NCBI GenBank assembly: GCA_900318395.1
Contig: ONKL01000044.1
Span: forward strand, 1 to 44,379
Direction: 5' to 3'
DNA: 44,379 nucleotides
Source of the DNA: an uncultured Prevotella sp.
GTDB taxonomy: Bacteria > Bacteroidota > Bacteroidia > Bacteroidales > Bacteroidaceae
Shown: in pieces, positions 6,045-20,209 of the stretch
Layout: every line of letters begins with the position of its first letter
Position numbering within the stretch: the first letter of the stretch is position 1
Made by a program: the position numbers and the translations under genes
Notes under the pieces: model-generated
What the model saw: the letters and a program-made list of their open reading frames with translations, nothing else
Database searches by the model: none
What the model was told of the DNA's origin: nothing

Positions 6045-6065
6045 CCACTTAAAACGAAACGAGCT

Positions 6066-7664
6066 ATGCAAAAGATTTCCAGATATATCAGTATGGCCGC
6101 CCTCGCATTGATGGGCACCATGATGACGGGCTGCACCGGCGACGACCTCGCCAAAGAGGCGCCACAGACAAACAACGACAACCACACCGTGACCCTGACC
6201 ACCACCATCAGCCTCGATGGCTCAGCCACCACCCGCGCACTCGACGCCCAGGGCAAGAAAACCTTCGCAGCAGGCGACCAAGTGGCGATATACTATCAGA
6301 ATACCAGCGATGTCGCGAAGATGGCCATCACCACGGCCCTTACGACCACCGATATCTCCGATGACGGCAAGACGGCCAAGTTCACCGTGACACTCAACGA
6401 CCCGAAGCCCTCAGGCAAGTTGCGCTATGTCTATCCCGCATCCATGGCAGAAACGGAAATCACCAGCGTCGATGGCAACGAAAACATCTCTACCGATTTC
6501 GAAGACGAGCAGGATGGCACGTTGGAAACGCTCGCCAGCAAATTCGACCTCGCCATCTACGACGGCTCTCTCTCCAGCAAAGCCCTGCTGCCCACTACCG
6601 CCACGCTGAAGAACCAGCTGACCATCGCCGAGCTGACCATCAAGGACTACGCTGGCACCGACATCACCGACAAAATCAAAAAGCTCGATATCCAGTTGTG
6701 TGGCAACGGCTACGCCCTGACACGCCCTGACAATGCCGCTGGCCCCATCTACGTGGCTTTGTATCCCACCCCTGGGAGCAACAAAGAGAACATCACCGTC
6801 ACCGCCACTGCCAACGACGACACAAAATACGAGAAGGATTTCAAATTCACCTTCGCCGCCAACAACATCTATCCCATAGCGGTAAAGACCTTTAAGGTCG
6901 TAGATGTCTCAACATTACCAATCCTTGACCGCGAAAAAAATGTCGGATATTATACGGCACAAAATGGCGACATGCTGACAGGCACGATTGCTAATAGAGT
7001 GCGTATTTGCATTGCCGCTAACGCCAACGTGGCATTGAAAAACTTAACCATTGATTATGAAAAGCCCCCTGGTTCAACTTATTTCCATAATTCTGGTATT
7101 ACCTGCATAGGCAATGCCACCATCATCCTCGAAGGAACAAACAAAGTGAAAGCTTTTGAAGGTGACTTTCCAGGCATCTCGGCTGCTACTAATAACTCTA
7201 CCCTCACTATCAAAGGTGATGGTTCGCTCGAGGCTATAGGCCAAATGGGTGGTGCAGGAATCGGTGGTGGTAAGGGGGGGAACTGTGGTAATATTGTCAT
7301 TGAGAGTGGATCTATTACTGCTACGGGCGGCAATAATGCTGCAGGTATCGGCAGTGGATATAGTAATTCCTGCGGTAATATCCTCATCAGCGGCGGAACA
7401 GTAAAGGCTACGGGCGGCAATAATGCAGCTGGCATCGGAACGGGAGATTATGGCACTTGCGGCTCCATCACCATCACTAATGGCGTGAAAGAAGTGATTG
7501 CCAAGAGGGGCACTAATGCAGATTGTAGCATTGGTAAGGGAAATGGTAACAGCAGCTGCGGCAAGGTGACTATCCTTGGCGTCGAATATTGGAACGGTTC
7601 TGGTTATGTGAATGATGAAGGCCGTATCTACCTCCAGGATCCCGATCTCAAAATCATCCCTTAG
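6066..7664 (+). CDS. Fimbrillin-like lipoprotein with glycine-rich repeat tail
   Basis: This 532-aa protein has a lipoprotein signal (ALALMGTMMTGC, Cys23). The N-terminal half (about 40-285) follows the fimbrillin / Mfa-like pattern: a TTRAL motif, FAAGDQVAIYY, KLRYVYPASM, then a second domain with PIYVALYPTPG and NIYPIAVKTFKV. The C-terminal part (about 340-515) holds tandem beta-helix-like repeats: GGAGIGGGKGGNCGNIVIES, GNNAAGIGSGYSNSCGNILI and GNNAAGIGTGDYGTCGSITI, spaced about 29 residues apart, each with a cysteine. Fimbrillin-family proteins form surface pili or adhesins. The repeat tail is not part of the classical fimbrillin fold, so this looks like a fusion that displays a repeat domain. 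Confidence 0.82.
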   Translation: MQKISRYISMAALALMGTMMTGCTGDDLAKEAPQTNNDNHTVTLTTTISLDGSATTRALDAQGKKTFAAGDQVAIYYQNTSDVAKMAITTALTTTDISDDGKTAKFTVTLNDPKPSGKLRYVYPASMAETEITSVDGNENISTDFEDEQDGTLETLASKFDLAIYDGSLSSKALLPTTATLKNQLTIAELTIKDYAGTDITDKIKKLDIQLCGNGYALTRPDNAAGPIYVALYPTPGSNKENITVTATANDDTKYEKDFKFTFAANNIYPIAVKTFKVVDVSTLPILDREKNVGYYTAQNGDMLTGTIANRVRICIAANANVALKNLTIDYEKPPGSTYFHNSGITCIGNATIILEGTNKVKAFEGDFPGISAATNNSTLTIKGDGSLEAIGQMGGAGIGGGKGGNCGNIVIESGSITATGGNNAAGIGSGYSNSCGNILISGGTVKATGGNNAAGIGTGDYGTCGSITITNGVKEVIAKRGTNADCSIGKGNGNSSCGKVTILGVEYWNGSGYVNDEGRIYLQDPDLKIIP

Positions 7665-7770
7665 GGTCATGTCACAAAAGGGTCAGGACACTTTGTGAGA
7701 AGGGGACAGGCACCTGGGGTGAGATCAGGATACTTTGATTTGTTCCCCCATCTGCGCTTGTTGCCTCACG

Positions 7771-7828
7771 CTGGGGTCTGGCACTGACGTAAAGTCGCTT
7801 GCGACTTTACGTCAGTGCCAGACCCCAG
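7771..7828. repeat. GGGTCTGGC-type palindrome, copy B (28-bp perfect arms)
   Basis: The left arm (7771-7798) begins CTGGGGTCTGGCACTGACGT and the right arm (7801-7828) is its exact reverse complement, with only TT between them. The flanks GCCTCACG and TGCGAGGC extend the pairing imperfectly to about 7763-7836. It starts 106 bases after the fimbrillin-like gene. It could be a REP/RAYT-type element or a very strong terminator hairpin. Confidence 0.85.
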
Positions 7829-7899
7829 TGCGAGGCGTTTTCCTAGAGAGAGATCACGGGGACAGGTTCATGATCGCTCGTGCCGAACGACTCACGCTC

Positions 7900-8390
7900 A
7901 AATCTCAAAAACTAATGACATATGACATAAAAGTTGTTATATTTGTCTTGTTATCAGATGATTATAAAATTTTGAATTGACATAGAAGTGACATAGAAAC
8001 GACATAGAAACGACATATTAATGACATACTAATGACATAAAGAGGGGCAATAAGGGGGCCTTATTCTGCAATAAGGGACCCTTATTGGCTGGTAAGTGCT
8101 GCTTATTCGCTATCCTTAGGCTCGTTATTGATTCCCAGTGTGGGAATACTTTATTCCCAACGTGGGAATAATATGTTCCCAACGTGGGAATTCTCCGTCA
8201 GATACCTCCCTGATGGGCACTTAATCTGGTCTATCGTTAGCTAAAAACAGACCTTTTATGTCATTAGCATGTCGTTTTTATGTCGTTTTTATGTCGTTTT
8301 TATGTCATTTATCAAACTTTTGATTTGAAACTAATTTACTGATAATCAGTGGTTTTAGATAAGTATTATGTCATATGTCATTAGATTTTG
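7900..8390. repeat. Large inverted repeat with GACATA-rich arms
   Basis: CTAATGACATATGACATAA (7912-7930) recurs as its exact reverse complement at 8366-8384. Further inside, the left arm carries a run of GACATA motifs (GACATAGAAACGACATAGAA, about 7980-8038). The right arm carries the complementary TATGTCGTTTT units (about 8256-8310). The arms are roughly 130-150 bp and imperfect. The central 200 bases hold AATAAGG/CCTTATT palindromes (8050-8095) and the TTCCCA palindromes. Confidence 0.7.
8131..8190. promoter_or_regulatory. Three TTCCCA-N3-TGGGAA palindromes at 22-bp spacing
   Basis: TTCCCAGTGTGGGAA starts at 8132, and TTCCCAACGTGGGAA starts at 8154 and again at 8176. The exact 22-bp period, about two helical turns, places all three on the same face of the DNA, as in operator or iteron arrays. 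No binding protein is known to me for this motif. Confidence 0.6.
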
Positions 8391-8434
8391 AAATTATTCT
8401 GAAAATTGAGATCACCTATGAGTTTGCGGGCGGC

Positions 8435-8575
8435 GGTGACACTATGACACCTAAAAATATAAATTTTCACGCGTACCGCGTAGGTTATTATATAATACGC
8501 ACATATATACGCATATATACGCGCGGTACGCGAGAGAATTTCAGAATATGGTGTCACATGTGTCCTTGTGTCACC
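8435..8575. repeat. Imperfect inverted repeat with GGTGACAC ends
   Basis: GGTGACAC (8435-8442) pairs with GTGTCACC (8568-8575), and CGCGTACCGCG (8470-8480) pairs with CGCGGTACGCG (8522-8532). The loop is AT-rich with tandem ATATATACGC. Reading frames across it merely translate the repeat. Confidence 0.7.
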
Positions 8576-8582
8576 TGTACAT

Positions 8583-8644
8583 GAACTCACTGGTGACGGT
8601 TCCGAGTGCACGAGAACTCACTCGGAACCGTCCCCAGTGAGTTC
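8583..8644. repeat. 26-bp hairpin with GGAACCGTCCCC arm
   Basis: The left arm 8583-8608 starts GAACTCACTGGTGACGGTTC; the right arm 8619-8644 is its reverse complement with one mismatch, and the loop is 10 bases. The GGAACCGTCCCC motif resembles REP-like repeats found in many genomes. It lies about 65 bases upstream of the promoter of the SpoIIE-like gene. Confidence 0.7.
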
Positions 8645-8710
8645 TTTCTCCTATTTTATATCCGTTTTGTAGAAAAATAATAAAATGAGGCGAAAAAACG
8701 TTTCACTTCA

Positions 8711-8742
8711 TTGATAGTTTCATTTTATTTGTGTACCTTTGC
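8711..8742 (+). promoter_or_regulatory. Promoter of the SpoIIE-spike-STAS operon
   Basis: TTGA (8711-8714), 19 bases, then TACCTTTGC (8734-8742). It is the only clear sigma-ABfr-type promoter I see before the plus-strand run that extends to 21859. Confidence 0.7.
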
Positions 8743-8785
8743 AAAGCGTATGCAATACTATTGAGCTTGAATAGTGAAATGTGAA

Positions 8786-10696
8786 ATGAAAAAGAGTAAG
8801 TTGTCGCGCCGCATCACTTGGCGTGTTATCGCTATCATGATATTCTTCAATGGTCCGATCATTGGAGCCATGGTTTGGTCTGTCTATAAAGTCTCGCTCG
8901 TGAACAGCAATATGCGTGGGCAGTATGTCGTCGACGGGATCGTAGGCAAGATAGGGTCGAGGTTACAGGCTGTGCATGTAGCGGCTGACAATAACCGTGA
9001 TGAAGTAGAGAGAAACCTGGGGAGCCCGGAGCAAGTCTTTGAGGCCTTGGAGCGCGAAATTTCCGTGAACCACCTCATGGGCTGTTTTGCAGCCTTCGAG
9101 CCTGATTACTTCAAAGATCAGGGCCGCTGGTTTGAAGCCTACGTTTACTATGCCGACAGTACTCATATTAAGCGCCAACAGATAGGCTCACCAAGCCACG
9201 ACTATTTCAATGGCCCATGGTATAAGAAAGGAATTGAACGGAACAGAGAGGATTTGGGCTATCTGACATCCCCCTACTTCGACAATTCCGTTGACAGTAA
9301 TATGTACTGCAGCTATGTGCTGCCTATCTTTGACCGTCAGAATCGCAAGGTGGGAGTGTATGGCTTTGACCTGCATTACATTTGGGCGAACGATATCCTC
9401 GGCGAGGTTGAGAAAACAGTCAAGAGAGAATTCTTCGACAAAGATGTAATTTTCCGGGACAGGGACGGCAACTCAAAATTCTCCATCCAGTTCATCGACG
9501 ATAAGGGCAACAGAGTTTTTGGTTCAGACTCCATTGACATCAATATTCTCAAAGCTGAGCAGGAGGAAGCCATTACAAACCTTGAGATGAGAAATCTCAA
9601 GGGCACGCCTTATTATGTCAATTTCAAACCGATGCCTTTTACAAACTGGACTGTGGCTGTCATACAGCACCGCGACTTGGTGTTTACACAGGGTATTTTA
9701 CTTGCCTTATTCATCATACTCTGCATGTTTGTCGGTAGCCTGGTCATCTTCTTCTTTATCTCCAAGAGCATCCGCCGCGTTACCAAGCCATTGGGATTCC
9801 TCTCCGATTCGGCCCAGGAGGTGGCCAAGGGTAACTTTGACGCCCCACTGCCCACGTTCAAGCATAACGACGAGGTGGCTCAGCTTCGCAACTCGTTCGG
9901 CACCATGCAGCAGTCGCTGAAGAAGTATATGGAGGATCTGAAAGCATCGACCACCGCCAAAGCTGCATTAGAGAGTGAACTCAATATCGCCCGCGACATC
10001 CAACTATCGAAGGTGCCTACGGAGTTCCCCGAGCGGCTCGATCTCGACATCTTTGCCAGCATGACTCCTGCCAAGGCTGTCGGTGGTGACCTCTATGACT
10101 TCTTCGTGCGTGGCAACGAACTCCTCTTCTGTTTGGGCGACGTCTGCGGCAAAGGGGTGCCAGCCGCCCTGTTCATGATGGAGACCAGAAGCCTGTTCCG
10201 TGCCTACGCTGCCGACGAGGACAGACCCGACCGCATTGTTTTGAAAATGAACAAAAACCTGAACGAGCAAAACGAGAGTCTGATGTTCGTCACCCTCTTC
10301 GTCGGCATCCTCGATCTGACAACAGGCGAGCTACGCTATTGTAATGCCGGCCACGAGACACCTCTTGTCATCAACAAGGAGCTCAGTCAACTGCCATTCG
10401 ATGGTGTCAGCCCTGTTGGCCTTATTCCCACTCCACCGTATGTGATGCAGACAGTCCATATAGAGCCGCACACCACGATTCTGATCTATACCGACGGACT
10501 GGACGAGGCGATGACTGCCGATAAGGAGAAGTATGGTCATGAGCGGGTTTTCAACGAGGTGAGCCGTGCCATTCAGGATGGGCAGACAGGACCGAAAGAA
10601 CTGATAGAGAGACTGAAGCAGGCAGTGCGCAACTATGTAGGCGATGCCGAGCAGAGTGACGACCTGACCATGCTCGCTATCAGATTCAGGAAATAG
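8786..10696 (+). CDS. Membrane SpoIIE/RsbU-type PP2C phosphatase with Cache-like sensor and HAMP
   Basis: This 636-aa two-pass membrane protein should dephosphorylate STAS-domain antagonists, as RsbU and SpoIIE do. Transmembrane segment 1 is near residues 10-35, then an extracytoplasmic domain of about 260 residues with a Cache-like pattern (FAAFEPDYFKDQGRWFEAYV, GPWYKKGI, VGVYGFDLH). Segment 2 is near 303-328, then HAMP (about 330-385, ending NDEVAQLRNSF), a linker helix ending ALESELNIARDIQLSKVP, and the catalytic domain with metal-binding Asp in GGDLYDFF (about 433) and GDVCGKGVPAALFM (about 451), and C-terminal SDDLTMLAIRF. A GTG at 8774 would add four residues; I prefer the ATG. It opens the spike/partner-switch operon and is probably its signal input. 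Confidence 0.9.
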   Translation: MKKSKLSRRITWRVIAIMIFFNGPIIGAMVWSVYKVSLVNSNMRGQYVVDGIVGKIGSRLQAVHVAADNNRDEVERNLGSPEQVFEALEREISVNHLMGCFAAFEPDYFKDQGRWFEAYVYYADSTHIKRQQIGSPSHDYFNGPWYKKGIERNREDLGYLTSPYFDNSVDSNMYCSYVLPIFDRQNRKVGVYGFDLHYIWANDILGEVEKTVKREFFDKDVIFRDRDGNSKFSIQFIDDKGNRVFGSDSIDINILKAEQEEAITNLEMRNLKGTPYYVNFKPMPFTNWTVAVIQHRDLVFTQGILLALFIILCMFVGSLVIFFFISKSIRRVTKPLGFLSDSAQEVAKGNFDAPLPTFKHNDEVAQLRNSFGTMQQSLKKYMEDLKASTTAKAALESELNIARDIQLSKVPTEFPERLDLDIFASMTPAKAVGGDLYDFFVRGNELLFCLGDVCGKGVPAALFMMETRSLFRAYAADEDRPDRIVLKMNKNLNEQNESLMFVTLFVGILDLTTGELRYCNAGHETPLVINKELSQLPFDGVSPVGLIPTPPYVMQTVHIEPHTTILIYTDGLDEAMTADKEKYGHERVFNEVSRAIQDGQTGPKELIERLKQAVRNYVGDAEQSDDLTMLAIRFRK

Positions 10697-10734
10697 AACT
10701 ACATACACTTATGGCAAAATCGTGAATTATAATC

Positions 10735-11037
10735 ATGAAAACTACAATACATACAAGTGAAGGCAAGGCACTGGTCAACTTTGAGGGTGAAATGGACTCG
10801 CATATCATTGGCCAGGTGGCAATGGATATGGCTCCCCTATTGGAACTCAAAGACACGGACATCACGCTCGACTGTAGCAAGCTGGAGTATATCTCGTCCA
10901 ACGGATTCCGGCTGTTCCAGATATTGATTTCGGCAGCAAGGTCGAATAGAAGCACCCTATACATACAAGGCCTTAGCCCCGATCTCGTGGATGTTTTCAA
11001 AGCGTCGGGGTTTGACAAGTGTTTTATATTTAAATAA
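10735..11037 (+). CDS. STAS-domain anti-sigma factor antagonist (first of two)
   Basis: This 100-aa protein has the length and fold pattern of SpoIIAA/RsbV. The phosphorylation loop is LDCSKLEYISSNGFRLF, with Ser54 or Ser55 the likely phosphosite. By family analogy the unphosphorylated form binds an RsbW-type ATPase and releases that ATPase's other partner. It lies 38 bases after the SpoIIE-type phosphatase, its probable activator, and 22 bases before the VgrG-like gene. The matching kinase is probably the protein at 18622, at the far end of the operon. Confidence 0.88.
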   Translation: MKTTIHTSEGKALVNFEGEMDSHIIGQVAMDMAPLLELKDTDITLDCSKLEYISSNGFRLFQILISAARSNRSTLYIQGLSPDLVDVFKASGFDKCFIFK

Positions 11038-11059
11038 GAATTTTCAAAATCTTACAAAT

Positions 11060-14000
11060 ATGGCAGACGAATCGAAGATTATCACAAAATCTGGCTTTTA
11101 TCGCTACCAACTGACGTTAGGTAGCCAGATAGGCAAGAGTTCGCCCGGCACCATGAAATTAGTGCAAGGCATAAGCGTATTAATGGATAATTCGGATGAT
11201 AAATCCAAATACTATGTCACCTTGCGCGGCGTGAAGGTGAATAAGAAGATCTATCAACCTACAGAAATAGAGGCCGAAGTTGATTTTGTATTGAAAACCA
11301 ACGACACTTCTGGAAAAGATTCGACAAACGTCCCCTCGTTTGAGGCAGCCACGTCTTTGTTTATGAGGAGAGAGGTTGAACTGGAAATCTTAGAATCAGA
11401 CAAGCCTTTAACATCCGGTGGTAATACCATTTCTGATAAAAATAATAAAGTCCATGCGCACAAAGTGGCGGTGAGCTGCTTTGTGTATGAGGTGTTCCCG
11501 AAGCTGAAGTGCGATACTAACGGCAAAAAGATGTATGTGAAGCTGAACATCTTCAGTATGGATAAGCTGATGACGATCAACAAGTATAGCAAGGCCTATG
11601 TGGCCCGTAAGCTTGGATCGGGCATCCTGAAGCCTGAGAGTCTGAACTTCGGCAAGAAGGCCGACGGAGCGACGCCCCTGATAAAGACCAATAAGAACGG
11701 GCTGAGGTTCTTGAAATATATTGAGAGCGATACATCAACAGACACCAATGGCAACAGTACGGAGACAAACATCGGCACCGAGTTTATCCAACCTTACCTG
11801 GTGCAGTATAACGAGTCGTTCTACGACTTCCTGGTTCGCACGGCCAACCGCTGCGGTGAATTCCTATACTTCGAGAACGGTCAGTTGACATTAGGCCTGC
11901 CTGACAGCCAGGCTGTGACCATCGATAAATATGCTTCCATCACCGAGCATGGCATGTCGCCCGACCCGATGACTATAACGCCCTACAGCTTCGACAGCAT
12001 GAAGAACGGTAAGGGAGAGATGGGCGACCTGAATTATAAGGCTATCGACAAGCTCCCTACAGGTTTCCCGAAAGACGCATTCCCTAAAAATGCGACGAGC
12101 AATTCCGAGCTGGCCCATGATGAGTATTTCTTCCCATTGGAGAAAGATAAGTTCACCACCTTTAAGCGTGAGTGTAACTCTGACATTAATGCCACTAATG
12201 TCACCCTGTGGAGGTTGATACCTCTTATGAAGACTGTTTTCACCAGTGATGACGGAATAACAGGCCTGGTGTCATGGGCTATTGGTACAGAGGCCCTCAA
12301 TGTATTGAAGGCATATTTCAACAAAAACACGGTCGACACAGAGGGATATGAAGCGTGGATAGCTCCCTACGAAAAAACAGACGATCAGTATGACTCAAAA
12401 GCCCAAAAGAGCGTGATGTTCGGTTCTGCGAATGAAAAATGCTGGACGACCATCGACTTCTACAACAACATCCTGAAGAACGAGGAAGAGCAGCAGCGCA
12501 AAATTGTCTGTGTCGATATGGGTACGAACTATATCAATCTGCAATTAGGCGAGAAAGTCAAGATCGACGGTCTGGAGAAAGACTATGTCATCATCCAGGT
12601 CGAGGAGACGTCTGAAGAGTCTTGGGATAATGACTATGAGCAGTACGACACAGCCTCATCCGACCAGAGTAAAGGCTCGCGCTCACTTAAATTCTTTGCC
12701 ATCCCATCTTATAAGGATGAAAATGGTAAAGAGCAGTTCATCCCACCCTTACAGAAAGAGCCTCGAATCCGCAAGGTCGGTCCACAGTCGGCTTTCGTCA
12801 CCGACAATGTCGACCCGAAATTTCAAGGCCGTGTGCGCGTGGCCTATCCCTGGCAATCGTTGCAAGGTGCGGACGGGGTAAAACTGGAAGAGGCAAGTCA
12901 GAAGTTAAAGGTTGCTACAGATAATAAGAAAGAGCTGGAGGACCGAAAAAAAGCACTGAATGCGCTCTTGATCAAACTCTTGGCAGAGCTTGAAGAAGTT
13001 AAAGCCTTTGTGAATGCCTCTAAGGATGATCGCGAGGCGTTGTTGCAGACTAAGGATGGTGAGATTTCAGGTTTGGAGGACCACATCAAACAGTTGGTTG
13101 ATGCTCTGATAAGTGCCGAGAACTCAAAGAAGCAGCTGGAGAATGATATAAAGAAGGGAAATCTCACAGAGCTGGATTTGAATACAAAGAAAAGCGAAAT
13201 CTTAGCATATGAGAATTCTATTCAGGCTAAAGAAAAGGATATTGAGCAGAAGAAGGCTAAGCTTAAGGATCTCAAAGCTCTCAGGCAATTAATGATAGAC
13301 GCAGCCGCAGAGCATGACCGGAAGACCAAAGATAATGATCCAGATTATCAGGACATTGAGGAGGATAACACCGTCATCGCAGCACTGTTGCAGAGGTACA
13401 ATCAGACTACAGTTGAATATCAGGACTGCTATACTCTTCTTGAGGAAAAGGAGGCGAAAGTCTCTGAAAGTGAGAAAGAGGTTGAAACAATCAAGGCAAT
13501 CATAGAAGAGAGTGTCAAAGCCATGTCATCGCCTTGGATACGCGTAGCCACCCCAATGGCCACAGACGGAGGCGGTACCTACTTCCGACCGAATGTTGGC
13601 GACGAGGTGCTCATTAACTATGATAATGACAACATCGAGCGCCCCTACGTCGTTGGTAGCCTCTTCTCTAAGAATGTGCTGGATCCTGTTGAGCGCGTAC
13701 AACGTAAGGCCAATCCTCTCATTCAACAGCAAGACGTCTCGATGTCGCTAACATCCCGCAATGGTCATCATATCACCTTTACCGATCCTGATACTGGTGG
13801 TAGCTTTATCACGAATTTCCTCTCGCCTGGTCTCGGATTTATTACTAGCTTGGTTGGCCTCGACCAGTTTGGAGAGAACGTGAGGGATCTGGCAGGTGGT
13901 ATCCACATGGGCGACCGCTACAATATCAATGAAATTGAGATGGTTACCCATAGGCGCGAGCTCAATATCAGATCACAATTAGGAACGATCACGCTGAGTG

Positions 14001-15424
14001 CGTTCAAAGGAATTACCGTCGATGCGCCTAATGCCGATGTCACCATCAAGGGTATGAATATCAACCTCATAGCCGGTAACAAAGTGAATATCATATCAGG
14101 GGATAACATCAAGCCGCCTACAATAGATGATCCAGAAGGAAAGGGAGCTTATATCGGTGCACTCTTGGTCAACACCGTCCTTGGTGGTGCTGTAGGTGTC
14201 GGCGGAAATCTGGTCATTGGAGATACCGTAGATTTCTCGACGATACGACGAATGGTGGAGATATTCGTTCGCCCGGTTGACGGTACGATGCTCATCAAGT
14301 CGAAGCGTTATCTCATGCTTGAGGCCGGACCTGGTCATGCCACAGTGAAGGCCGACCGGTATAAGAATCTGGCGGTTAAGAAACAGGGGCTTTTCTCGAA
14401 ACTTCTCTCCGGTACAAAGCCGACGGAGGATAAAGAGACCATGGAAGAGTTCTATAAGTCATTGATCTTATGCATAGATTATATTAATAATACTATCACA
14501 GAATTTGGTCAAGTTTATAATAATCGTTGGATAAAAGCCAAAAAGGCGTCTATTAATTATCTCGATGTGATTCCTGCTCTCGACAAAGACGCCCCCAATA
14601 TTGAGAGCAAAATGTGGAACAATATGTTTAAAGAATGGGATGAAAGTTGGATTAATTATCGTTCCCCGGCGTATTGGAAGGATACATCTTTTACGGCAGG
14701 TTCAAAAGAATATTGTACTCCAGAAGAGAAATTCGGTTATTTTAAAGACAAGATCATAGACTATGCCAAGGCTACCCATGAACTTTTCCAATATGGATCT
14801 GATATAACTATACTTTTTCATGATGCTCATGTAGAGGTTCCTGAGAAATTTTCTTGGATAGTAACAGACTGCTTGAAGAAATGTATTAAACCTCTTAATA
14901 ATAGTATTTATGAGAAGTGGTGCGAGTTTTATGAAAGTGATAAAGGGAAAATTTCCATTTGGCCTCTTGTGCCACCAAAGGATATCTTTCAAAAGGATAA
15001 CCTGAAAGTTGTCAAACGTAAGGCGATATTGTCTTTCCTTTATTTGGTGAATAACCACAAGGAAAACGCGGGGAATAAGTTCATCAAGATCGGCTTAGAT
15101 ATGGATTATGTAAACAAGACTAATTCGTATCGTCAGGAGCATTATTGGCAACGTCAGGTCAATACTATAGATCATTTTATCCAGAGTACCAAATTCTGGA
15201 GAATGCTATATGATGGAACTGTTGACTTGTTTGTATCTAAGTTCCATAGTAATTTCCAGTCCTTGGATCAGGACGTTTGGGAAAGCACGAAAGACGGTCA
15301 GATATTGTTCTCTGAGAAAGAAGGTAGCACCGTGAACTTCAATGGTACACAGCTGGAGGAACAAAGCCGTGCTAACATCGGAACCATGGATAATCTGAAG
15401 AAAGTGCTGATGGCCATTAAGTAG
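11060..15424 (+). CDS. Giant VgrG-like spike protein with coiled coil inserted in the OB fold
   Basis: This 1454-aa protein keeps the order of VgrG / phage gpD-gp5 spikes. A gpD-like N-terminal half has QPYLVQYNESFYDFLVRTAN (about 244-263) followed by GEFLYFENGQLTLG. The gp5-type OB fold starts with FVTDNVDPKFQGRVRVAYPW (about 578-597) and resumes with SSPWIRVATPMATDGGG and PNVGDEVLINYDNDNIERPY (about 822-865). Between these halves sits a Lys/Glu-rich coiled coil of about 200 residues (607-815). After the OB fold comes a beta-spike segment (VDAPNADVTIKGMNINLIAG, about 985-1004). Then a helical C-terminal domain (about 1125-1414), AT-richer than the rest and unrecognised, could be an effector or adaptor. 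I start at the ATG at 11060, because the longer frame overlaps the STAS gene. VgrG proteins form the tip of type VI secretion and related injection systems. Confidence 0.82.
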   Translation: MADESKIITKSGFYRYQLTLGSQIGKSSPGTMKLVQGISVLMDNSDDKSKYYVTLRGVKVNKKIYQPTEIEAEVDFVLKTNDTSGKDSTNVPSFEAATSLFMRREVELEILESDKPLTSGGNTISDKNNKVHAHKVAVSCFVYEVFPKLKCDTNGKKMYVKLNIFSMDKLMTINKYSKAYVARKLGSGILKPESLNFGKKADGATPLIKTNKNGLRFLKYIESDTSTDTNGNSTETNIGTEFIQPYLVQYNESFYDFLVRTANRCGEFLYFENGQLTLGLPDSQAVTIDKYASITEHGMSPDPMTITPYSFDSMKNGKGEMGDLNYKAIDKLPTGFPKDAFPKNATSNSELAHDEYFFPLEKDKFTTFKRECNSDINATNVTLWRLIPLMKTVFTSDDGITGLVSWAIGTEALNVLKAYFNKNTVDTEGYEAWIAPYEKTDDQYDSKAQKSVMFGSANEKCWTTIDFYNNILKNEEEQQRKIVCVDMGTNYINLQLGEKVKIDGLEKDYVIIQVEETSEESWDNDYEQYDTASSDQSKGSRSLKFFAIPSYKDENGKEQFIPPLQKEPRIRKVGPQSAFVTDNVDPKFQGRVRVAYPWQSLQGADGVKLEEASQKLKVATDNKKELEDRKKALNALLIKLLAELEEVKAFVNASKDDREALLQTKDGEISGLEDHIKQLVDALISAENSKKQLENDIKKGNLTELDLNTKKSEILAYENSIQAKEKDIEQKKAKLKDLKALRQLMIDAAAEHDRKTKDNDPDYQDIEEDNTVIAALLQRYNQTTVEYQDCYTLLEEKEAKVSESEKEVETIKAIIEESVKAMSSPWIRVATPMATDGGGTYFRPNVGDEVLINYDNDNIERPYVVGSLFSKNVLDPVERVQRKANPLIQQQDVSMSLTSRNGHHITFTDPDTGGSFITNFLSPGLGFITSLVGLDQFGENVRDLAGGIHMGDRYNINEIEMVTHRRELNIRSQLGTITLSAFKGITVDAPNADVTIKGMNINLIAGNKVNIISGDNIKPPTIDDPEGKGAYIGALLVNTVLGGAVGVGGNLVIGDTVDFSTIRRMVEIFVRPVDGTMLIKSKRYLMLEAGPGHATVKADRYKNLAVKKQGLFSKLLSGTKPTEDKETMEEFYKSLILCIDYINNTITEFGQVYNNRWIKAKKASINYLDVIPALDKDAPNIESKMWNNMFKEWDESWINYRSPAYWKDTSFTAGSKEYCTPEEKFGYFKDKIIDYAKATHELFQYGSDITILFHDAHVEVPEKFSWIVTDCLKKCIKPLNNSIYEKWCEFYESDKGKISIWPLVPPKDIFQKDNLKVVKRKAILSFLYLVNNHKENAGNKFIKIGLDMDYVNKTNSYRQEHYWQRQVNTIDHFIQSTKFWRMLYDGTVDLFVSKFHSNFQSLDQDVWESTKDGQILFSEKEGSTVNFNGTQLEEQSRANIGTMDNLKKVLMAIK

Positions 15425-15465
15425 TGAAGAGTGAAAAGTGAAGAGTGAAAAGTGAAAAGTGAAAA
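15424..15465. repeat. Six heptanucleotide units GTGAARA directly before a start codon
   Basis: Units GTGAAGA or GTGAAAA run without interruption from the last base of the VgrG-like stop codon to three bases before the next ATG (15469). They contain GAAAAG/GAAGAG purine runs in the position of a ribosome binding site, so a change in unit number would alter leader spacing. A similar array lies at 40813-40847. Confidence 0.85.
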
Positions 15466-15468
15466 GTT

Positions 15469-17472
15469 ATGGATTACATATTTGAAGAATGGGAGAAGAA
15501 ACTCTCTGAATTTAAGGACAATGTAGAGAGTGAGCTGTCTGAAATCCGGAAATGTAAGGCAGAGATGCAGCAGATGCAACTCGACTTTGTGGCTAAGATT
15601 AAGAAGGGTCAATATATGTACGATCCGGATTGTCTGGTGCTTTCGGCACCTAAGATTATTATTGGCCATGTGGATCGTAATGGCACGCTTCTCGGAGGCG
15701 GCTCAGAGGTCATCATCCGAGGCACACAGGTGGGGCTGCAAGGTGCTGGAGAAGGGGGAACGGTGGAAGTACGCGCTTCCAACATCCGCCAAGTAGCCGA
15801 AGATCCTGGTGTTGATGGTCTGGAACACGTCGTGGGCACATTGTCTGAGATTGTCAGTCAGGCCCGCAACATCATCATCCAGAGTAACGACATCGCCAAT
15901 GACAATGACTACCAAGGTGCCTTCTCTGCAGCAACGATTCCTGCGGGATCAAGTGGTGTGCGCATCCATGCAGATAAGAATATTGACATTCATGCGGCGA
16001 TGACAGCTGAGACCCGTCAGAAAGATCTGGAAGACCTGATCTCGGTGTTGGAGGAACAGCAGTCTGACCTTCAGGATCAAGTTGATGAGTGCAAGGAATC
16101 TTTCGACGAACTTGCTAAAGAGCTGAAGGGACTCTTGGAAGAAAGAGGAGACCTGATGGAAGACAATGATGACGTGCGTACCAACTATAAGGATATCAGT
16201 GGTAAGAGTGACGAAATCGAGGACACTGCGCAACTACTGACGAAGCAGTCTTATGTCTACATCGAAGTGCTCTCAAAACTGGCAGAAACCAACCGCCGCT
16301 TACAGTGTTATAAAAAGGAAAAGGATAATATTGTTACAGGCGATGACTTCAAGAACAACAGTACAGGTGCCAATGTAAGGGTCTTGGGTGAAGCCATTAG
16401 CCTCGTCTCGGCCGACGGCGAAGGCAACCTGCGCGACAATGAGAATGCTGGCATCGGAATGGTTGCCAACAATGTATCCATTGCTGCTATTGAGGATGAC
16501 AACAGCTTAAAGGAAAACGGTCGTGTAAGCATCCGCTCCAAGAACATCGAAGTCTCGACAGCCAATACTGCCGATGTGCAACGTGAGGAGGACGGCACTC
16601 TCACGGCGGCTACCTATGCTGCTGAGGGCGACTTTACCCTGAAGTCGAAGAACATCACCATCGAGGCTGTGGATTACGAGGTGGCCGAGAGTAAGAAGAA
16701 GGAAAAGCAACTGACTGACGATAGCAAGATTAAACTCCGTGCCAAGACCATTGAGGTGAGCACCGAGGGCTCTGCCAATATCGAAGTCGACGATGACGGA
16801 GCCATCACCAAGGCTAACTACACTGCAGAGGGCGATCTGATCGTGAAGTCGAAGACCGTCACCGTGAAGAGTACCGACAATGACATCGAGAATGGCGAGG
16901 AGAAGGAGAAAGCCCTGACTTCAGAGAGCAAGGTCTTCATCCGTGCCGAGAAGGTGGATGTCGTATCGACCGATACCGAGGGCAAGGCCACTGGCAGCGT
17001 CAGCATCAATGCAAAGGATGTCAGCGTCAAGTCGATGGATATAGACAAGGAAAGTGGCGACGACTCAGCTCTGGCCGAAGGCAGTACGATGCTACTCGTT
17101 TCTGAGAAGATGTATATGGGCTCGAAGTCCGACGATGTGAAGAGCAAGAAGGTGCAGATAGTATCCGAGGAGATCGGTGCCTTTGCCGACAAGACCATCG
17201 AGGCGCAGCAGGGCGACGGCAAGGCTGTGGTACAGTTGGCCGATGGCAAGTCGGCTGTGGGTGGCGACGAGACACAGGTCTATGGCAAGACCACGATCAA
17301 CGCCGACACAGAGGTAAAGGGCGAGGTGAAAGCTCCGAAGGCCACGATCGACGACCTCAATGCCAGCTCGCACTTCAAGACACCCAATATCGAAGACGGT
17401 GTGGCTGCAGGCGCCGGTGGCGGTGGTGGCAGCCTGAGCACCAAGCTGACTAAGGAGGACGCAGGCAAATAA
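15469..17472 (+). CDS. Second spike-like protein: beta-helical repeats interrupted by a coiled coil
   Basis: This 667-aa protein begins with a short helical stretch (1-45), then beta-rich segments (LSAPKIIIGHVDRNG, SEVIIRGTQVGLQGAGEGGT) like the VgrG C-terminal needle. A coiled coil follows at about 183-285. From about 345 there are tandem repeats of roughly 68 residues, each with an RSKNIEVST / RAKTIEVST / RAEKVDVVST strand and a DFTLKSKNITIE / DLIVKSKTVTVK strand. It ends in a Gly-rich segment followed by LSTKLTKEDAGK. The alternation of beta-helix and coiled coil mirrors the VgrG-like protein just upstream, so it is probably a spike extension or partner. No enzyme motif is visible and I recognise no named family. 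Confidence 0.7.
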   Translation: MDYIFEEWEKKLSEFKDNVESELSEIRKCKAEMQQMQLDFVAKIKKGQYMYDPDCLVLSAPKIIIGHVDRNGTLLGGGSEVIIRGTQVGLQGAGEGGTVEVRASNIRQVAEDPGVDGLEHVVGTLSEIVSQARNIIIQSNDIANDNDYQGAFSAATIPAGSSGVRIHADKNIDIHAAMTAETRQKDLEDLISVLEEQQSDLQDQVDECKESFDELAKELKGLLEERGDLMEDNDDVRTNYKDISGKSDEIEDTAQLLTKQSYVYIEVLSKLAETNRRLQCYKKEKDNIVTGDDFKNNSTGANVRVLGEAISLVSADGEGNLRDNENAGIGMVANNVSIAAIEDDNSLKENGRVSIRSKNIEVSTANTADVQREEDGTLTAATYAAEGDFTLKSKNITIEAVDYEVAESKKKEKQLTDDSKIKLRAKTIEVSTEGSANIEVDDDGAITKANYTAEGDLIVKSKTVTVKSTDNDIENGEEKEKALTSESKVFIRAEKVDVVSTDTEGKATGSVSINAKDVSVKSMDIDKESGDDSALAEGSTMLLVSEKMYMGSKSDDVKSKKVQIVSEEIGAFADKTIEAQQGDGKAVVQLADGKSAVGGDETQVYGKTTINADTEVKGEVKAPKATIDDLNASSHFKTPNIEDGVAAGAGGGGGSLSTKLTKEDAGK

Positions 17473-17514
17473 AGATAAAATAGTAAAATAAATAAGGTAG
17501 AAAAGTGAATCATT

Positions 17515-18183
17515 ATGGATAATTATATTTTAGCTGAAATAAATGAATTTTCACAGAGGGAGAATGGCTATCTGGCATTATTCTGTGTTCGCCTGGGTAA
17601 TTTCTGTGTCAAAGCCGATCCGCAGGCCATGCTGCCAGCGACGATTAGATTGGAAAGTGCAGAGTACAACTTCGAGGACGTAGCCGAGGCTACAAGACCG
17701 AACGACTACACCTTCGACGTCACTCCCAAGAACGAGAACAGTCTGAAAGCCATCATTCAGGGCGTGGCCGAAGTGCACCCGGAGTTTAAGGTCAGTGTGA
17801 AGATCAAAGAGTATGATGGAGGCATTAAAGAGCGCCATATCATCTATACGATGCCTGAAGTGAACAAGGAACGTCGCGATCTGCTTAACGATACGTGCAA
17901 GACCTTCCACAAGGAGTGTGTGGCTAAGCTCGAATGGGCCTATGACAAGCGACTGGCCGATACTGCGCAATTGCTTACCAGAATACCCATCCAAGATGCA
18001 GACAATGCCAGGAAGGTATTTGAGAAAACTTATAATGACGCCAAGGAAAATGCAGAGAAGCTCCTGAATGCCAAGCTCCAGGAGATTGAGGAGGGCTATC
18101 AGCGCTATCTTGCGGGGAAGGATAATACTTGGGAAAATTCCTATAAGGATGATACAGAAGTTGATGTCAGTTCACTCATATAA
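17515..18183 (+). CDS. Ribosome recycling factor-like protein (divergent RRF paralogue)
   Basis: This 222-aa protein aligns by eye with RRF along most of its length. RLGNFCVKADPQAML (26-40) matches the RTGRASPALL region. Residues 54-81 (FEDVAEAT, then TFDVTPKNENSLKAI) match the LNQVATISVPD and ALKAIEKAI segment. YTMPEVNKERRDLL (111-124) matches the hallmark LPPLTEERRKEL. The following helices (125-196, ending KLLNAKLQEIEEGY) match the long C-terminal helices. The arginine pair before the conserved Asp in canonical RRF (NVRRDA) is AYD here (142-144), and the C-terminal extension (about 200-222) is extra. This is probably not the housekeeping RRF. Its place between spike and partner-switch genes suggests a recruited role, perhaps binding ribosomes or acting as a structural adaptor; that is inference. 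Confidence 0.65.
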   Translation: MDNYILAEINEFSQRENGYLALFCVRLGNFCVKADPQAMLPATIRLESAEYNFEDVAEATRPNDYTFDVTPKNENSLKAIIQGVAEVHPEFKVSVKIKEYDGGIKERHIIYTMPEVNKERRDLLNDTCKTFHKECVAKLEWAYDKRLADTAQLLTRIPIQDADNARKVFEKTYNDAKENAEKLLNAKLQEIEEGYQRYLAGKDNTWENSYKDDTEVDVSSLI

Positions 18184-18200
18184 AATATTAAAATAAAAAA

Positions 18201-18608
18201 ATGGAAAACGACTTTATAGTATCGATAAAAGGAACGACGCTAACTATCGAGTTAGGCAAGGAACTCGCAACGGCCAATTCTCCGGCATTGACCGAAGAAC
18301 TGTCGAAGTATCGGGGGCAGGATATCACTAAGGTGGTCTTCGATGCATCTCGACTGCAGATTCTCTCCAGTAGCGGCATCCGCGTTATCTTCTTTGTCAA
18401 TCAGAGGATAGGCCACAATCCAGAGATCGTGTTCGTGAATTGTGCCAAGGAAATATACGAGTCGCTTGAATTCGTCGGACTGACGAAGACTATTACGTTT
18501 GAAGAGAACAAGAGCAAACTTATCCTTCGCCAGAAAAAGGTGCTCGAAGACTACGCTGCGAACAACGACGTGGTGTGCTATCAGATGAAGTTAGGACAAG
18601 AAGACTAA
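18201..18608 (+). CDS. STAS-domain anti-sigma factor antagonist (second)
   Basis: This 135-aa protein has an RsbV/SpoIIAA-like STAS fold (LTIELGKELATANSPALTEE, VVFDASRLQILSSSGIRVIF) with the phosphosite loop at Ser56-58. A C-terminal extension of about 35 residues (KSKLILRQKKVLEDYAANND onward) is longer than in the first STAS protein, so the two are unlikely to be redundant. It starts 17 bases after the RRF-like gene and ends 13 bases before the RsbW-like gene, the classical STAS-kinase pairing. Confidence 0.87.
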   Translation: MENDFIVSIKGTTLTIELGKELATANSPALTEELSKYRGQDITKVVFDASRLQILSSSGIRVIFFVNQRIGHNPEIVFVNCAKEIYESLEFVGLTKTITFEENKSKLILRQKKVLEDYAANNDVVCYQMKLGQED

Positions 18609-18621
18609 TCGTTCTTTCTCC

Positions 18622-19029
18622 ATGATCAGACTACACTTCCAACCCATACTGGGCAAAAGCCTCGAAATCATCAATGCCATGCTCCATCATAAGGAGCTGG
18701 CATCGGTGGAAGAGGCGCTTTATAACAAGCTCTATGTGGTGGTTGATGAGCTGGTAACAAATATAGTCAACTATGCCTATCCCGACGGCAAGAACGACTA
18801 CCTCGATGTGGAGATCAAACATGATGAAGAGCTTCTGACGATCCGATTTCGCGATGGGGGGATACCGTTCAATCCTCTGGAGCTAGCTCCTCCCGACATC
18901 TCTCTACCGATGAATCAGCGTCCAATCGGAGGATTAGGCATCCGTCTCGTCATCCAGAAGGCCGACACCATTGCCTACGAATATACCGACGGTGAGAACG
19001 TCCTCACCATATCTTTTAAAAAACAATGA
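18622..19029 (+). CDS. RsbW/SpoIIAB-like serine kinase / anti-sigma-type ATPase
   Basis: This 135-aa GHKL ATPase shows the N box (VVDELVTNIVNYAY, Glu43 and Asn47), the G1 box (RFRDGGIPFNP, Asp78) and the G2 glycines (PIGGLGIRLV, 101-110). Family members bind ATP, phosphorylate STAS partners and sequester a target, usually a sigma factor. No sigma factor is encoded in this window, so the target is either distant or not a sigma factor. With the phosphatase and two STAS proteins it completes a partner-switching set within one operon. Confidence 0.9.
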   Translation: MIRLHFQPILGKSLEIINAMLHHKELASVEEALYNKLYVVVDELVTNIVNYAYPDGKNDYLDVEIKHDEELLTIRFRDGGIPFNPLELAPPDISLPMNQRPIGGLGIRLVIQKADTIAYEYTDGENVLTISFKKQ

Positions 19030-19033
19030 TTAT

Positions 19034-20209
19034 ATGACATCTTTTCAATCCAGAAGTTTCGACCACGCTGCATCATCGCAGGCCTGTTGGAAGTCGGTCT
19101 TCCTCTTAGTTCTTGTTTGTTTACTAACCTTAGCAACCTCTTGCTCTAAAGACGACGAGCCCAATGACCAGCCGCTGCTGAAAGGCATCATCTCATCGTA
19201 TAACGAGTACGATGGAGCCATGCTTGACTTGACGAAAGCAGACATGGAGAAGGCTGGATTCGCACTCGGCGATGTGGTCAGCATCACCCTCGACGACAAA
19301 ATATTCGACGTGCCTTACTACGACGGCTATTATGCCCGTAGCGGAGAACTCCTGCTCGTGGCTTATCCCAGCTATTCCACGATCTGCTTTACGGCCAGCA
19401 ACACCGGACTGCCCAAGGAGCTCAGAGGGCTGGAGGGGCATGCCGTCACCGTCAGGATGAAGGTAAAGGGGGGCGGTTTCGACGTGCAGAAGGCCATGAG
19501 CATGGAATACTCCAACGAGCGCAAAGACTATCCGAACCTTACTGATGCGGAATTTGCCAATGCCCGCGCCGTGAAAGCCGGCAAGATTGCAAGCGGCGTT
19601 CTCCACCGTTGTTCTACGCCGTTCACCGATGTCACCAAACGTGCCTTCTATGTATCGGATTATCTGGAAAACATCAAGGATATGACCGTGCTCAACCTCG
19701 CCGACACGGAGGAGAAAATGAAGGGCTACGACATGCCTCCCTTCAGCCGTACACTCTGGGATGGAGGTAAAGTGATACTGTGCCCGCTGAAGGCTGACCC
19801 TACGGCAGAAGATTATAACAACCGACTGATTGCGGCACTGAAGGAACTCCCGACGCGCCCTGGCCCCTATGTCGTGCATTGCATGGAGGGAAAAGACCGC
19901 ACCGGGTATGTGTGCGCCCTGCTTGAGGGATTATGCGGCGCAACGTATGAGGAAATTGTGGCCGACTACCTGGTCACCTATAACAACTATTACAAGGTCA
20001 ACCCCCAAAATGACCCTGATGTATGCAAAACGTTATTAACGCTGAGACTCAACCCCTGCCTGATGTATTATGCCGGGGTCAGCGACGAAGCTCAGCTGCC
20101 GAACGTGGACTACGCAAAGGCGTTCTCAAGCTATCTGCTCTCTCACGGCATGAGCCAACAGCAACTTGACGCTCTGATACAGGCTTTGACAGTCAGCAAG
20201 GATGTCTGA
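19034..20209 (+). CDS. Lipoprotein tyrosine phosphatase (DSP/IphP-like)
   Basis: This 391-aa protein has an N-terminal extension, then a hydrophobic signal and lipobox (FLLVLVCLLTLATSCSK), so it is probably lipid-anchored outside the cytoplasm. The phosphatase P-loop is VVHCMEGKDRTGYVCALLEG, with nucleophile Cys283 and Arg289 (C-X5-R), as in bacterial tyrosine phosphatases of the Y_phosphatase3 type. The conserved GVLHRCSTP and VLNLADTEEKM motifs lie upstream. It starts four bases after the RsbW-like stop; an ATG at 18971 would overlap that gene and spoil the signal. Being so tightly linked it may belong to the partner-switch operon, although its location outside the cytoplasm suggests other substrates. 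It overlaps the MATE gene by eight bases. Confidence 0.85.
   Translation: MTSFQSRSFDHAASSQACWKSVFLLVLVCLLTLATSCSKDDEPNDQPLLKGIISSYNEYDGAMLDLTKADMEKAGFALGDVVSITLDDKIFDVPYYDGYYARSGELLLVAYPSYSTICFTASNTGLPKELRGLEGHAVTVRMKVKGGGFDVQKAMSMEYSNERKDYPNLTDAEFANARAVKAGKIASGVLHRCSTPFTDVTKRAFYVSDYLENIKDMTVLNLADTEEKMKGYDMPPFSRTLWDGGKVILCPLKADPTAEDYNNRLIAALKELPTRPGPYVVHCMEGKDRTGYVCALLEGLCGATYEEIVADYLVTYNNYYKVNPQNDPDVCKTLLTLRLNPCLMYYAGVSDEAQLPNVDYAKAFSSYLLSHGMSQQQLDALIQALTVSKDV

What the first reader, a model, noticed from the sequence alone, without database searches (positions are those of the whole stretch)
8786..20209. Partner-switching module wired to an orphan injection-type spike
A SpoIIE-type phosphatase, a STAS protein, a VgrG-like spike, a second spike-like protein, an RRF-like protein, a second STAS protein, an RsbW-like kinase and a lipoprotein tyrosine phosphatase are encoded on one strand with gaps of 4 to 45 bases. 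Partner switching normally controls sigma factors. Here no sigma factor is present and the set encloses spike genes. Type VI systems are known to use PpkA/PppA phosphorylation for post-translational control, so a partner switch gating assembly or loading of a spike would be a plausible but, to my knowledge, undescribed analogue. The linkage is seen; the function is inferred.
Basis: partly seen in the sequence, partly recalled or inferred. Interest (0 to 1): 0.88.

Follow-up and report, generated by a model that had tools for sequence, protein, structure and literature searches.

The report
Phospho-switch wired into injection-spike loading
In a Prevotella-like gut bacterium, a protein switch best known for controlling genes is built into operons for the spikes of a cell-to-cell injection weapon, and one switch protein carries a short end-piece that elsewhere belongs to the spike's own helper protein, which suggests that the cell may turn individual spikes on and off by phosphorylation.

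Summary
Seven co-directional genes (SpoIIE, STAS1, VgrG, spike2, RRF-like, STAS2, RsbW) form the module; a relative (L021) keeps the same order at 74-90% protein identity. The tyrosine phosphatase is not part of it. The spike is not orphan: the genome has a type VI core (TssC, three TssD, TssE, ClpV) and ten VgrG loci. Switch genes recur: 7 of 15 STAS genes of this genome sit beside VgrG or RRF-like genes, and 42 of 86 spike copies not flagged as core (biased sample) have SpoIIE, STAS and/or RsbW in the operon.

New: STAS2 ends in a conserved tail (...NDVVxYxM[KR][LM]GQ[ED]D). RRF-like proteins of islands without STAS2 end in a similar tail; those with STAS2 lack it (strict motif 34 of 55 versus 0 of 22; 21 of 21 STAS2; 0 of 843 other proteins). 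STAS2-like proteins away from spikes lack it (5 of 5). So the tail seems to have moved from the spike's adaptor to a phosphorylatable protein.

Best reading: STAS2 is a phospho-controlled, separately encoded part of a spike-loading adaptor. Linkage and tail distribution are shown; binding, phosphorylation and gating are inferred. My paper searches found no report of partner switching in type VI secretion.

The parts
8786..10696 (+). SpoIIE-type PP2C phosphatase with N-terminal membrane PDC/Cache sensor and HAMP (ORF also open from GTG 8774)
   Evidence: PF07228 E 1.8e-45, PF22673 2.1e-16, HAMP 9.4e-11; passes all four PP2C motif patterns
10735..11037 (+). STAS1, short STAS protein without tail; predicted acceptor Ser55 (codon 10897-10899)
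   Evidence: PF01740 E 8.2e-12; acceptor column invariant in the 6 STAS of alignment A3
11060..15424 (+). VgrG spike (TssI) with a coiled-coil-like insertion before the OB domain and a long C-terminal extension
   Evidence: Phage_base_V E 6e-16, vgr_GE model 6e-16, below its cut-off, solved T6SS VgrG E 1.8e-8; start chosen just after STAS1
15469..17472 (+). spike2, conserved second spike-like protein (repeat-rich, beta-helix suspected by eye; coiled coil at about 180-290)
   Evidence: no Pfam family above cut-off; found beside VgrG at all ten own-genome VgrG loci; alignment A1; matches only coiled-coil chains in the PDB. Fold not predicted
17515..18183 (+). RRF-like protein, a paralogue of ribosome recycling factor belonging to the spike operons; here without the C-terminal tail
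   Evidence: AlphaFold2 mean pLDDT 90.4, order of helices and strands as in RRF; profile matches solved RRF 1eh1 E 1.4e-11 over positions 11-199; separate canonical RRF on C84
18201..18608 (+). STAS2, STAS protein with conserved C-terminal tail
   Evidence: PF01740 E 4.9e-12; family alignment A4
18369..18371 (+). predicted phospho-acceptor Ser57 of STAS2
   Evidence: codon AGT; column invariant in A3 and A4; acceptor role by analogy with SpoIIAA/RsbV, recalled
18552..18605 (+). C-terminal tail YAANNDVVCYQMKLGQED of STAS2, similar to the ends of RRF-like proteins of other islands
18622..19029 (+). RsbW/SpoIIAB-like GHKL serine kinase
   Evidence: HATPase_c_2 E 2.3e-17; D.G.PF and GG.G patterns found, the N-box pattern did not match this copy; ELVTN (ExxxN) read by eye

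Best explanation
The operon is one of several VgrG islands serving the T6SS (T6SSiii type) of this genome, and it carries its own partner switch that controls whether this spike set is loaded or fired. In islands without STAS2 the RRF-like protein, made from a ribosome-recycling-factor fold, ends in a short tail that probably docks the spike complex to the T6SS machine. In islands with STAS2 the tail has left the RRF-like protein and sits on STAS2. STAS2 would bind the spike complex (RRF-like protein or VgrG) only in one phosphorylation state and so supply the tail in trans. The RsbW-like kinase phosphorylates STAS2 and the sensor phosphatase SpoIIE reverses this when its Cache domain senses an outside signal. 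STAS1 would be a second substrate. Shown: gene linkage, its recurrence, switch motifs in the window proteins, and the complementary distribution of the tail. Inferred: the docking role, binding partners, phosphorylation, direction of control and the signal.
For: Recurrence: own genome, six spike islands with SpoIIE (C46, C60, C92, C82, C23, C132) and seven adjacent STAS genes; 42 of 86 spike2 copies not flagged as core with same-strand SpoIIE, STAS and/or RsbW; L021 keeps all seven genes in order at 74-90% identity. Tail: strict motif in 21 of 21 STAS2, 34 of 55 RRF-likes without STAS2, 0 of 22 with STAS2, 0 of 843 other proteins, 0 of 25 STAS1, 0 of 88 VgrG. Genus sample: 0 of 10 RRF-likes with STAS2 and 7 of 18 without by the strict motif (loose 0 and 12, wide 1 and 18; wide background 160 of 777 ORFs). 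Closest pair: the RRF-like protein of L051 ends AYSMKLGQEDIN and scores E 6e-6 with a profile built from STAS2 tails only. STAS2-like proteins of five loci with no VgrG or RRF-like gene in the fetched stretch stop right after the STAS domain, 5 of 5. L072: STAS2 lost the acceptor serine and no SpoIIE is seen in the stretch, yet the tail stays.
Against: No interaction, phosphorylation or phenotype was tested. The short motif was chosen after seeing the sequences; a first, broader tail score separated the groups only weakly. Counts are not corrected for kinship: on the RRF tree only 3 independent STAS2 contrasts are supported (6 on the best tree), too few for a sign test; the tail went the same way in 1.8 (strict) or 2.3 (loose) of 3, the other way in 0.0 on average. 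By the strict motif 21 of 55 RRF-likes without STAS2 do not score, among them 6 of 8 core ones. The kinase was scored in only 7 of the 86 islands. Of 50 SpoIIE-like proteins only 30 pass all four PP2C motif patterns; those failing one include C92, C82 and C23 of this genome (the patterns may be too strict). The mirror comparison gives no clear partner: after allowing for spike2, STAS2 correlates 0.13 with RRF and 0.33 with VgrG. Most RRF-likes of STAS1 islands keep the tail, so the tail swap does not explain STAS1. Partner switches are common here (19 SpoIIE genes over cut-off), and one sits in an amylase operon.
Confidence: 0.55

Rival explanations
1. Ordinary transcriptional partner switch: STAS proteins act on a kinase whose other target is a sigma factor or regulator elsewhere; the switch genes ride in the spike operon only so that they are co-expressed.
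For: This is the classic output of such modules (recalled). An AraC-type regulator gene lies beside SpoIIE on the C132 island fragment, and the related SpoIIE-WD40 set on C28, without spike genes, is followed by two histidine kinase genes.
Against: It does not predict a tail shared between STAS2 and the RRF-like spike partner, nor its absence from RRF-like proteins where STAS2 is present. No sigma or anti-sigma factor other than the RsbW-like kinase among the 29 window ORFs scanned.
Confidence: 0.2
2. The tail is a turnover or recycling tag (for example read by ClpV or another protease), and the switch controls the lifetime of the adaptor rather than docking.
For: The tail is short, C-terminal and found on two unrelated folds, as degradation tags can be.
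Against: A tail-like end is also on the RRF-like protein of the T6SS core (L142, RQMRVGATEE), where constant turnover is harder to explain. No protease link was found or tested.
Confidence: 0.1
3. Hitch-hiking: this lineage has many partner switches and many VgrG islands, and they were shuffled together without functional coupling.
For: 19 SpoIIE, 15 STAS and 13 HATPase_c_2 genes over cut-off in the genome; island labels change often on the spike2 tree.
Against: 7 of 15 STAS genes adjoin spike or RRF-like genes; seven-gene order kept in L021; in the genus sample the tail is on STAS2-like proteins in spike islands (10 of 10) and not on those elsewhere (0 of 5).
Confidence: 0.07
4. STAS2 and its partners are cargo delivered by the spike, and the tail is a loading signal for delivery.
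For: The tail sits at the C terminus of both RRF-like and STAS2 proteins encoded with the spike.
Against: STAS2 is mostly accompanied by a SpoIIE phosphatase, in some islands by a kinase, and the window phosphatase has a membrane Cache sensor; STAS2 has no domain but STAS in Pfam above cut-off.
Confidence: 0.08

Closest known systems
RsbU-RsbV-RsbW / SpoIIE-SpoIIAA-SpoIIAB partner switching
   Same: PP2C phosphatase, STAS with acceptor serine, GHKL kinase, encoded together
   Different: no sigma factor among the window ORFs scanned; STAS2 has a C-terminal tail like that of a spike-operon protein; spike genes lie inside the operon
Bordetella BtrU-BtrV-BtrW control of type III secretion (passages of PMC8256260 seen)
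   Same: a partner switch tied to an injection system
   Different: type III, not type VI; [quoted passage not shown] type VI and T6SS do not occur in that text
Pseudomonas SiaABCD
   Same: SpoIIE phosphatase with sensor and STAS partner; the SiaA model matches the window SpoIIE at E 2.4e-23
   Different: 82.5 bits against a cut-off of 700; no diguanylate cyclase among the window ORFs scanned (that SiaD is one is recalled)
PpkA/PppA/Fha phosphorylation control of T6SS (recalled; of PMC12607579 only the listing with title and start of abstract was seen)
   Same: phosphorylation control of a T6SS after translation
   Different: other kinase and phosphatase families (recalled); by its title that paper concerns positioning and initiation of the machine, not one spike island
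T6SSiii of Bacteroidota (passages of PMC4714493 and PMC10781749 seen)
   Same: TssC, TssD, TssE, ClpV and VgrG present
   Different: here ten VgrG loci with spike2 and mostly RRF-like partners, and partner switches; the passages of PMC4714493 discuss TetR regulators, and the terms phosphatase, STAS and ribosome do not occur in its main text

Membership tests
Partner-switching module (Rsb/Spo type) | SpoIIE/PP2C phosphatase with metal-binding motifs | tested here: met
   window copy: PF07228 E 1.8e-45, four motif patterns; across islands 30 of 50 pass all four
Partner-switching module (Rsb/Spo type) | STAS protein with acceptor serine | tested here: met
   both window STAS; pattern found in 49 of 52 STAS; of the 3 missed, 2 show the serine by eye and L072 lacks it
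Partner-switching module (Rsb/Spo type) | GHKL kinase with N and G boxes | tested here: met
   HATPase_c_2 E 2.3e-17; G-box patterns; N box read by eye
Partner-switching module (Rsb/Spo type) | sigma factor target encoded with it | tested here: not met
   none among 29 window ORFs scanned with Pfam; genome not searched for sigma factors
Partner-switching module (Rsb/Spo type) | phosphorylation and exchange of partners | not testable with these tools
   biochemistry needed
T6SSiii | TssC, TssD, TssE, ClpV in the genome | tested here: met
   C66
T6SSiii | membrane complex TssN, TssO, TssP, TssQ, TssR | tested here: inconclusive
   no Pfam match under these names at E 0.01 or better among the core proteins scanned; 302-aa and 805-aa proteins of fitting size (sizes recalled)
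T6SSiii VgrG island | VgrG with gp27-like region and OB domain | tested here: met
   OB domain above cut-off, Phage_GPD below it
Ribosome recycling factor | RRF fold (three-helix bundle with inserted beta domain) | tested here: met
   AF2 secondary structure, pLDDT 90.4; PDB profile search; no structure comparison was possible
Ribosome recycling factor | is the housekeeping RRF of the genome | tested here: not met
   canonical RRF at C84 scores 224 bits; the window copy 28 bits, below cut-off
SiaABCD | SiaA model cut-off reached | tested here: not met
   82.5 bits against 700

The most novel reading that the evidence does not exclude
A separately encoded, phospho-switchable spike-loading adaptor: the docking tail of a T6SS adaptor derived from ribosome recycling factor has been moved to a STAS protein, so that each spike of a multi-spike cell is armed by its own signal-sensing partner switch without a sigma factor.
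Probability: 0.45. Interest if true: 0.92.

Novelty: new variant of a known kind. Interest (0 to 1): 0.8.

Why it matters
Bacteria with many VgrG spikes and one machine must decide which spike to load. If right, this shows a way to make that choice after translation and one spike at a time, with a signal-sensing phosphatase as input. It would also show partner switching with a mechanical output, a second job for the ribosome recycling factor fold, and a short portable tail that can be tested directly.

Tried and rejected
Rejected: the tyrosine phosphatase as a module member. Rejected: an RRF-STAS fusion in L025; the 248-aa STAS ORF is only an over-long start, and the RRF-like gene lies in another frame. 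Rejected: the ~160-aa protein before VgrG in Hcp-led islands as a degenerate STAS; by eye it looks like a second Hcp-like protein, though Pfam gave no match for three copies scanned. A first tail score (12-column matrix) separated the groups weakly (Mann-Whitney P 0.002) because it also weighted the NDVV stretch that RRF-like tails lack; I then used a short motif, so that motif was chosen after seeing the sequences. A mirror-distance test gave no clear STAS2 partner. A DNA pattern for the tail found two STAS2 genes and two other places that lie in ORFs of 18 and 43 codons.

Rows dropped or changed before counts: RRF-like ORFs cut by a stretch end, and proteins under 90 aa. L029 and L058 were moved to the STAS2 group because the six-frame scan showed STAS2 tails that my ORF choice had missed. 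L083 was counted apart because the place of STAS2 is off the contig. In the spike2 tree some labels are wrong for the same kind of reason (for example L054, L065 and L077 carry STAS2 but were labelled STAS1). The 86 copies still include some that look like core (for example L013, L032, L098). The 79 loci are the best of 180 confirmed ones, chosen by likeness to the spike2 alignment, so 42 of 86 is biased. The genus sample is drawn evenly: STAS2-like matches in 9 of 120 genomes, RRF-like genes in 10 of 120, 28 in all; it overlaps the first set. In a family sample STAS2-like matches were found in 2 of 41 genomes, the second a broken partial match. In an order sample RRF-like genes appeared in 1 of 295 genomes, the window's own.
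Full report
What is there. The window (44,379 bases, contig C46 of a 3.59 Mb, 132-contig assembly) belongs to a Prevotella-like lineage: the nearest named relatives of the spike gene are Prevotella assemblies, many from ruminants by their titles. VgrG most likely starts at 11060 and not at 10991, leaving 22 bases after STAS1.

The module has seven genes. In the closest relative (L021) the same seven genes stand in the same order at 84, 85, 74, 90, 90, 90 and 82% protein identity (SpoIIE, STAS1, VgrG, spike2, RRF-like, STAS2, RsbW), followed by an amylase-like gene where the window has the tyrosine phosphatase. The phosphatase profile gave one hit among 1342 ORFs.

The spike is not orphan. The genome has a T6SS core on C66 with ClpV, TssC, three TssD and TssE, and VgrG homologues at ten loci. 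All ten show VgrG with spike2 next to it, and nine an RRF-like gene after that (C123 ends at spike2). An eleventh island fragment, C132, holds RRF-like, STAS2, RsbW and SpoIIE genes.

The association recurs. In this genome STAS genes adjoin VgrG or RRF-like genes at C46 (two), C60, C92, C82, C23 and C132: 7 of the 15 STAS matches; SpoIIE genes belong to such islands at six of 19 genes over the cut-off (one gene, C63, gives two rows). Of 92 spike2 copies in 90 stretches, 6 were flagged as core; of the other 86, 22 had SpoIIE and STAS, 6 SpoIIE, STAS and RsbW, 7 STAS alone, 3 STAS and Hcp, 3 SpoIIE alone, 1 STAS and RsbW; 31 had Hcp without switch genes and 13 had neither. Contig ends and missed ORFs lower these counts. 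Several arrangements occur: SpoIIE-STAS-VgrG-spike2-RRF; VgrG-spike2-RRF-STAS-SpoIIE, sometimes followed by a DUF4280 protein (PAAR-like, recalled); VgrG-spike2-RRF-STAS-RsbW-SpoIIE; STAS-VgrG-spike2-RRF-SpoIIE-WD40. On the spike2 tree the labels change many times (at least 12 changes for STAS1 and 8 for STAS2 forced by supported branches), though some labels were wrong because of missed features.

The RRF-like protein is an RRF homologue. AlphaFold2 gives mean pLDDT 90.4 with one N-terminal helix, an alpha/beta insert and two long helices; a profile of 61 relatives matches solved RRF structures (1eh1, E 1.4e-11). The housekeeping RRF is separate, on C84 (224 bits).

The tail. STAS2 carries about 18 conserved residues at its C terminus. 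A profile made from STAS2 tails alone, run over the ORFs, picked RRF-like proteins as its best non-STAS hits (L051 E 6.3e-6, L047 E 0.0013), at or within a few residues of their C termini. Listing the ends of 81 RRF-like ORFs showed that those in islands with STAS2 end otherwise. With a strict motif (M[KRH][LMF], one to eight further residues, an acid among them): STAS2 21 of 21; RRF-like without STAS2 34 of 55 (10 of 15 with STAS1 only, 22 of 32 with no STAS, 2 of 8 core); RRF-like with STAS2 0 of 22; L083, set apart, 0 of 1; STAS1 0 of 25; VgrG 0 of 88; spike2 0 of 91; TssD 0 of 53; other proteins 0 of 843 (Fisher P 1e-7 without correction for kinship). A looser motif gives 49 of 55 against 1 of 22 (59 of 843 others). 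In the genus sample the strict, loose and wide motifs give 7, 12 and 18 of 18 without STAS2 and 0, 0 and 1 of 10 with it; the wide motif has a background of 160 of 777 ORFs. On a tree of RRF-like proteins made without the last 25 residues, STAS2 presence needs 6 changes (3 on supported branches); over 200 random sets of 3 independent pairs the tail was lost together with STAS2 gain in 1.8 (strict) or 2.3 (loose), went the other way in 0.0 and did not differ in 1.2 or 0.7 on average.

Two further contrasts. The genus search found 15 STAS2-like matches. Ten lie in islands with an RRF-like gene and carry the tail. Five lie in stretches where RsbW, SpoIIE and/or WD40 genes but no VgrG, spike2 or RRF-like gene were found; all five stop right after the STAS domain. 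In L139 only about 500 bases precede the gene on its contig. In L072 the acceptor serine is gone and no SpoIIE is seen, yet the tail remains.

How it most likely works. Tail-bearing RRF-like proteins would dock the spike to the machine. Where STAS2 occurs, the tail is supplied by STAS2, so docking depends on STAS2 binding, which the kinase and phosphatase can set. The Cache sensor on SpoIIE gives an outside input. Binding, phosphorylation and direction are inference. In STAS1 islands the tail mostly stays on the RRF-like protein, so STAS1 must act in another way; in the window both types are present.

What is known. Searches of the open full-text library: type VI secretion with partner switching and STAS, 0 papers; type VI secretion with Prevotella, VgrG and rumen, 1, on Kosakonia by title; type VI secretion with SpoIIE, 6, none on this by title and abstract start, one of them, PMC12088040, looked at by passages; partner-switching with secretion system, STAS domain and SpoIIE (three of four), 8; type VI secretion with ribosome recycling factor and Bacteroid, 0; VgrG with anti-sigma factor antagonist, 1, a Pseudomonas regulator review by title; a broader search, 46, of which the 10 listed hold no 'anti-anti-sigma' (the other 36 were not seen). 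None seen describes this. Subscription papers and preprints are not held. The nearest analogue in a paper of which I saw passages is the Bordetella BtrU/V/W control of type III secretion (PMC8256260).

Verdict. A real and recurrent linkage, with a specific sequence clue that points to a mechanical rather than transcriptional output. The parts that could be named are of known kinds; the combination is a new variant.

Noticed in passing
L012 (G000:C66:1-15000) and core clusters L078, L087, L098, L149, L154: The T6SS core operon encodes what looks like a ubiquitin-like conjugation set: ThiF/E1 (PF00899 E 1e-49), an E2-like protein (UQ_con below cut-off in 6 of 6 tested), a 105-aa protein with weak ubiquitin-like matches (3 of 3 tested; none for the own-genome copy) and perhaps a RING in the 805-aa protein, below cut-off. 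One paper search found nothing.
   Followed up: partly
L101 (G000:C81:10000-28000), 5658-11650: Another partner switch mixed with enzyme genes: SpoIIE-Cache, alpha-amylase, STAS, isoamylase-like, RsbW; a similar amylase-STAS-708 aa-RsbW run follows the spike module directly in L021.
   Followed up: partly
L049, L052, L061, L063, L064, L070, L071: Beside Hcp-led islands an opposite-strand Cache-SpoIIE gene fails three of the four PP2C motif patterns, perhaps a pseudo-phosphatase.
   Followed up: no
L014:2750-3619 (G000:C66b): A PDC/Cache sensor without phosphatase domain follows the RRF-like gene of an Hcp-led island.
   Followed up: no
L100 (G000:C28:4000-22000): SpoIIE, WD40 protein, two histidine-kinase-like proteins and a TonB plug protein in a row without spike genes; a SpoIIE-WD40 pair follows spike genes in C82 and in L054, L073, L077, L079.
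   Followed up: partly
L072:13431-13886: Natural STAS2 variant without the acceptor serine and with no SpoIIE seen in the stretch, tail kept.
   Followed up: partly
window 11060-15424, about residues 626-846 of the listed ORF: Coiled-coil-like insertion between the gp27-like part and the OB domain of VgrG; more distant own-genome VgrG paralogues align on either side of it.
   Followed up: no
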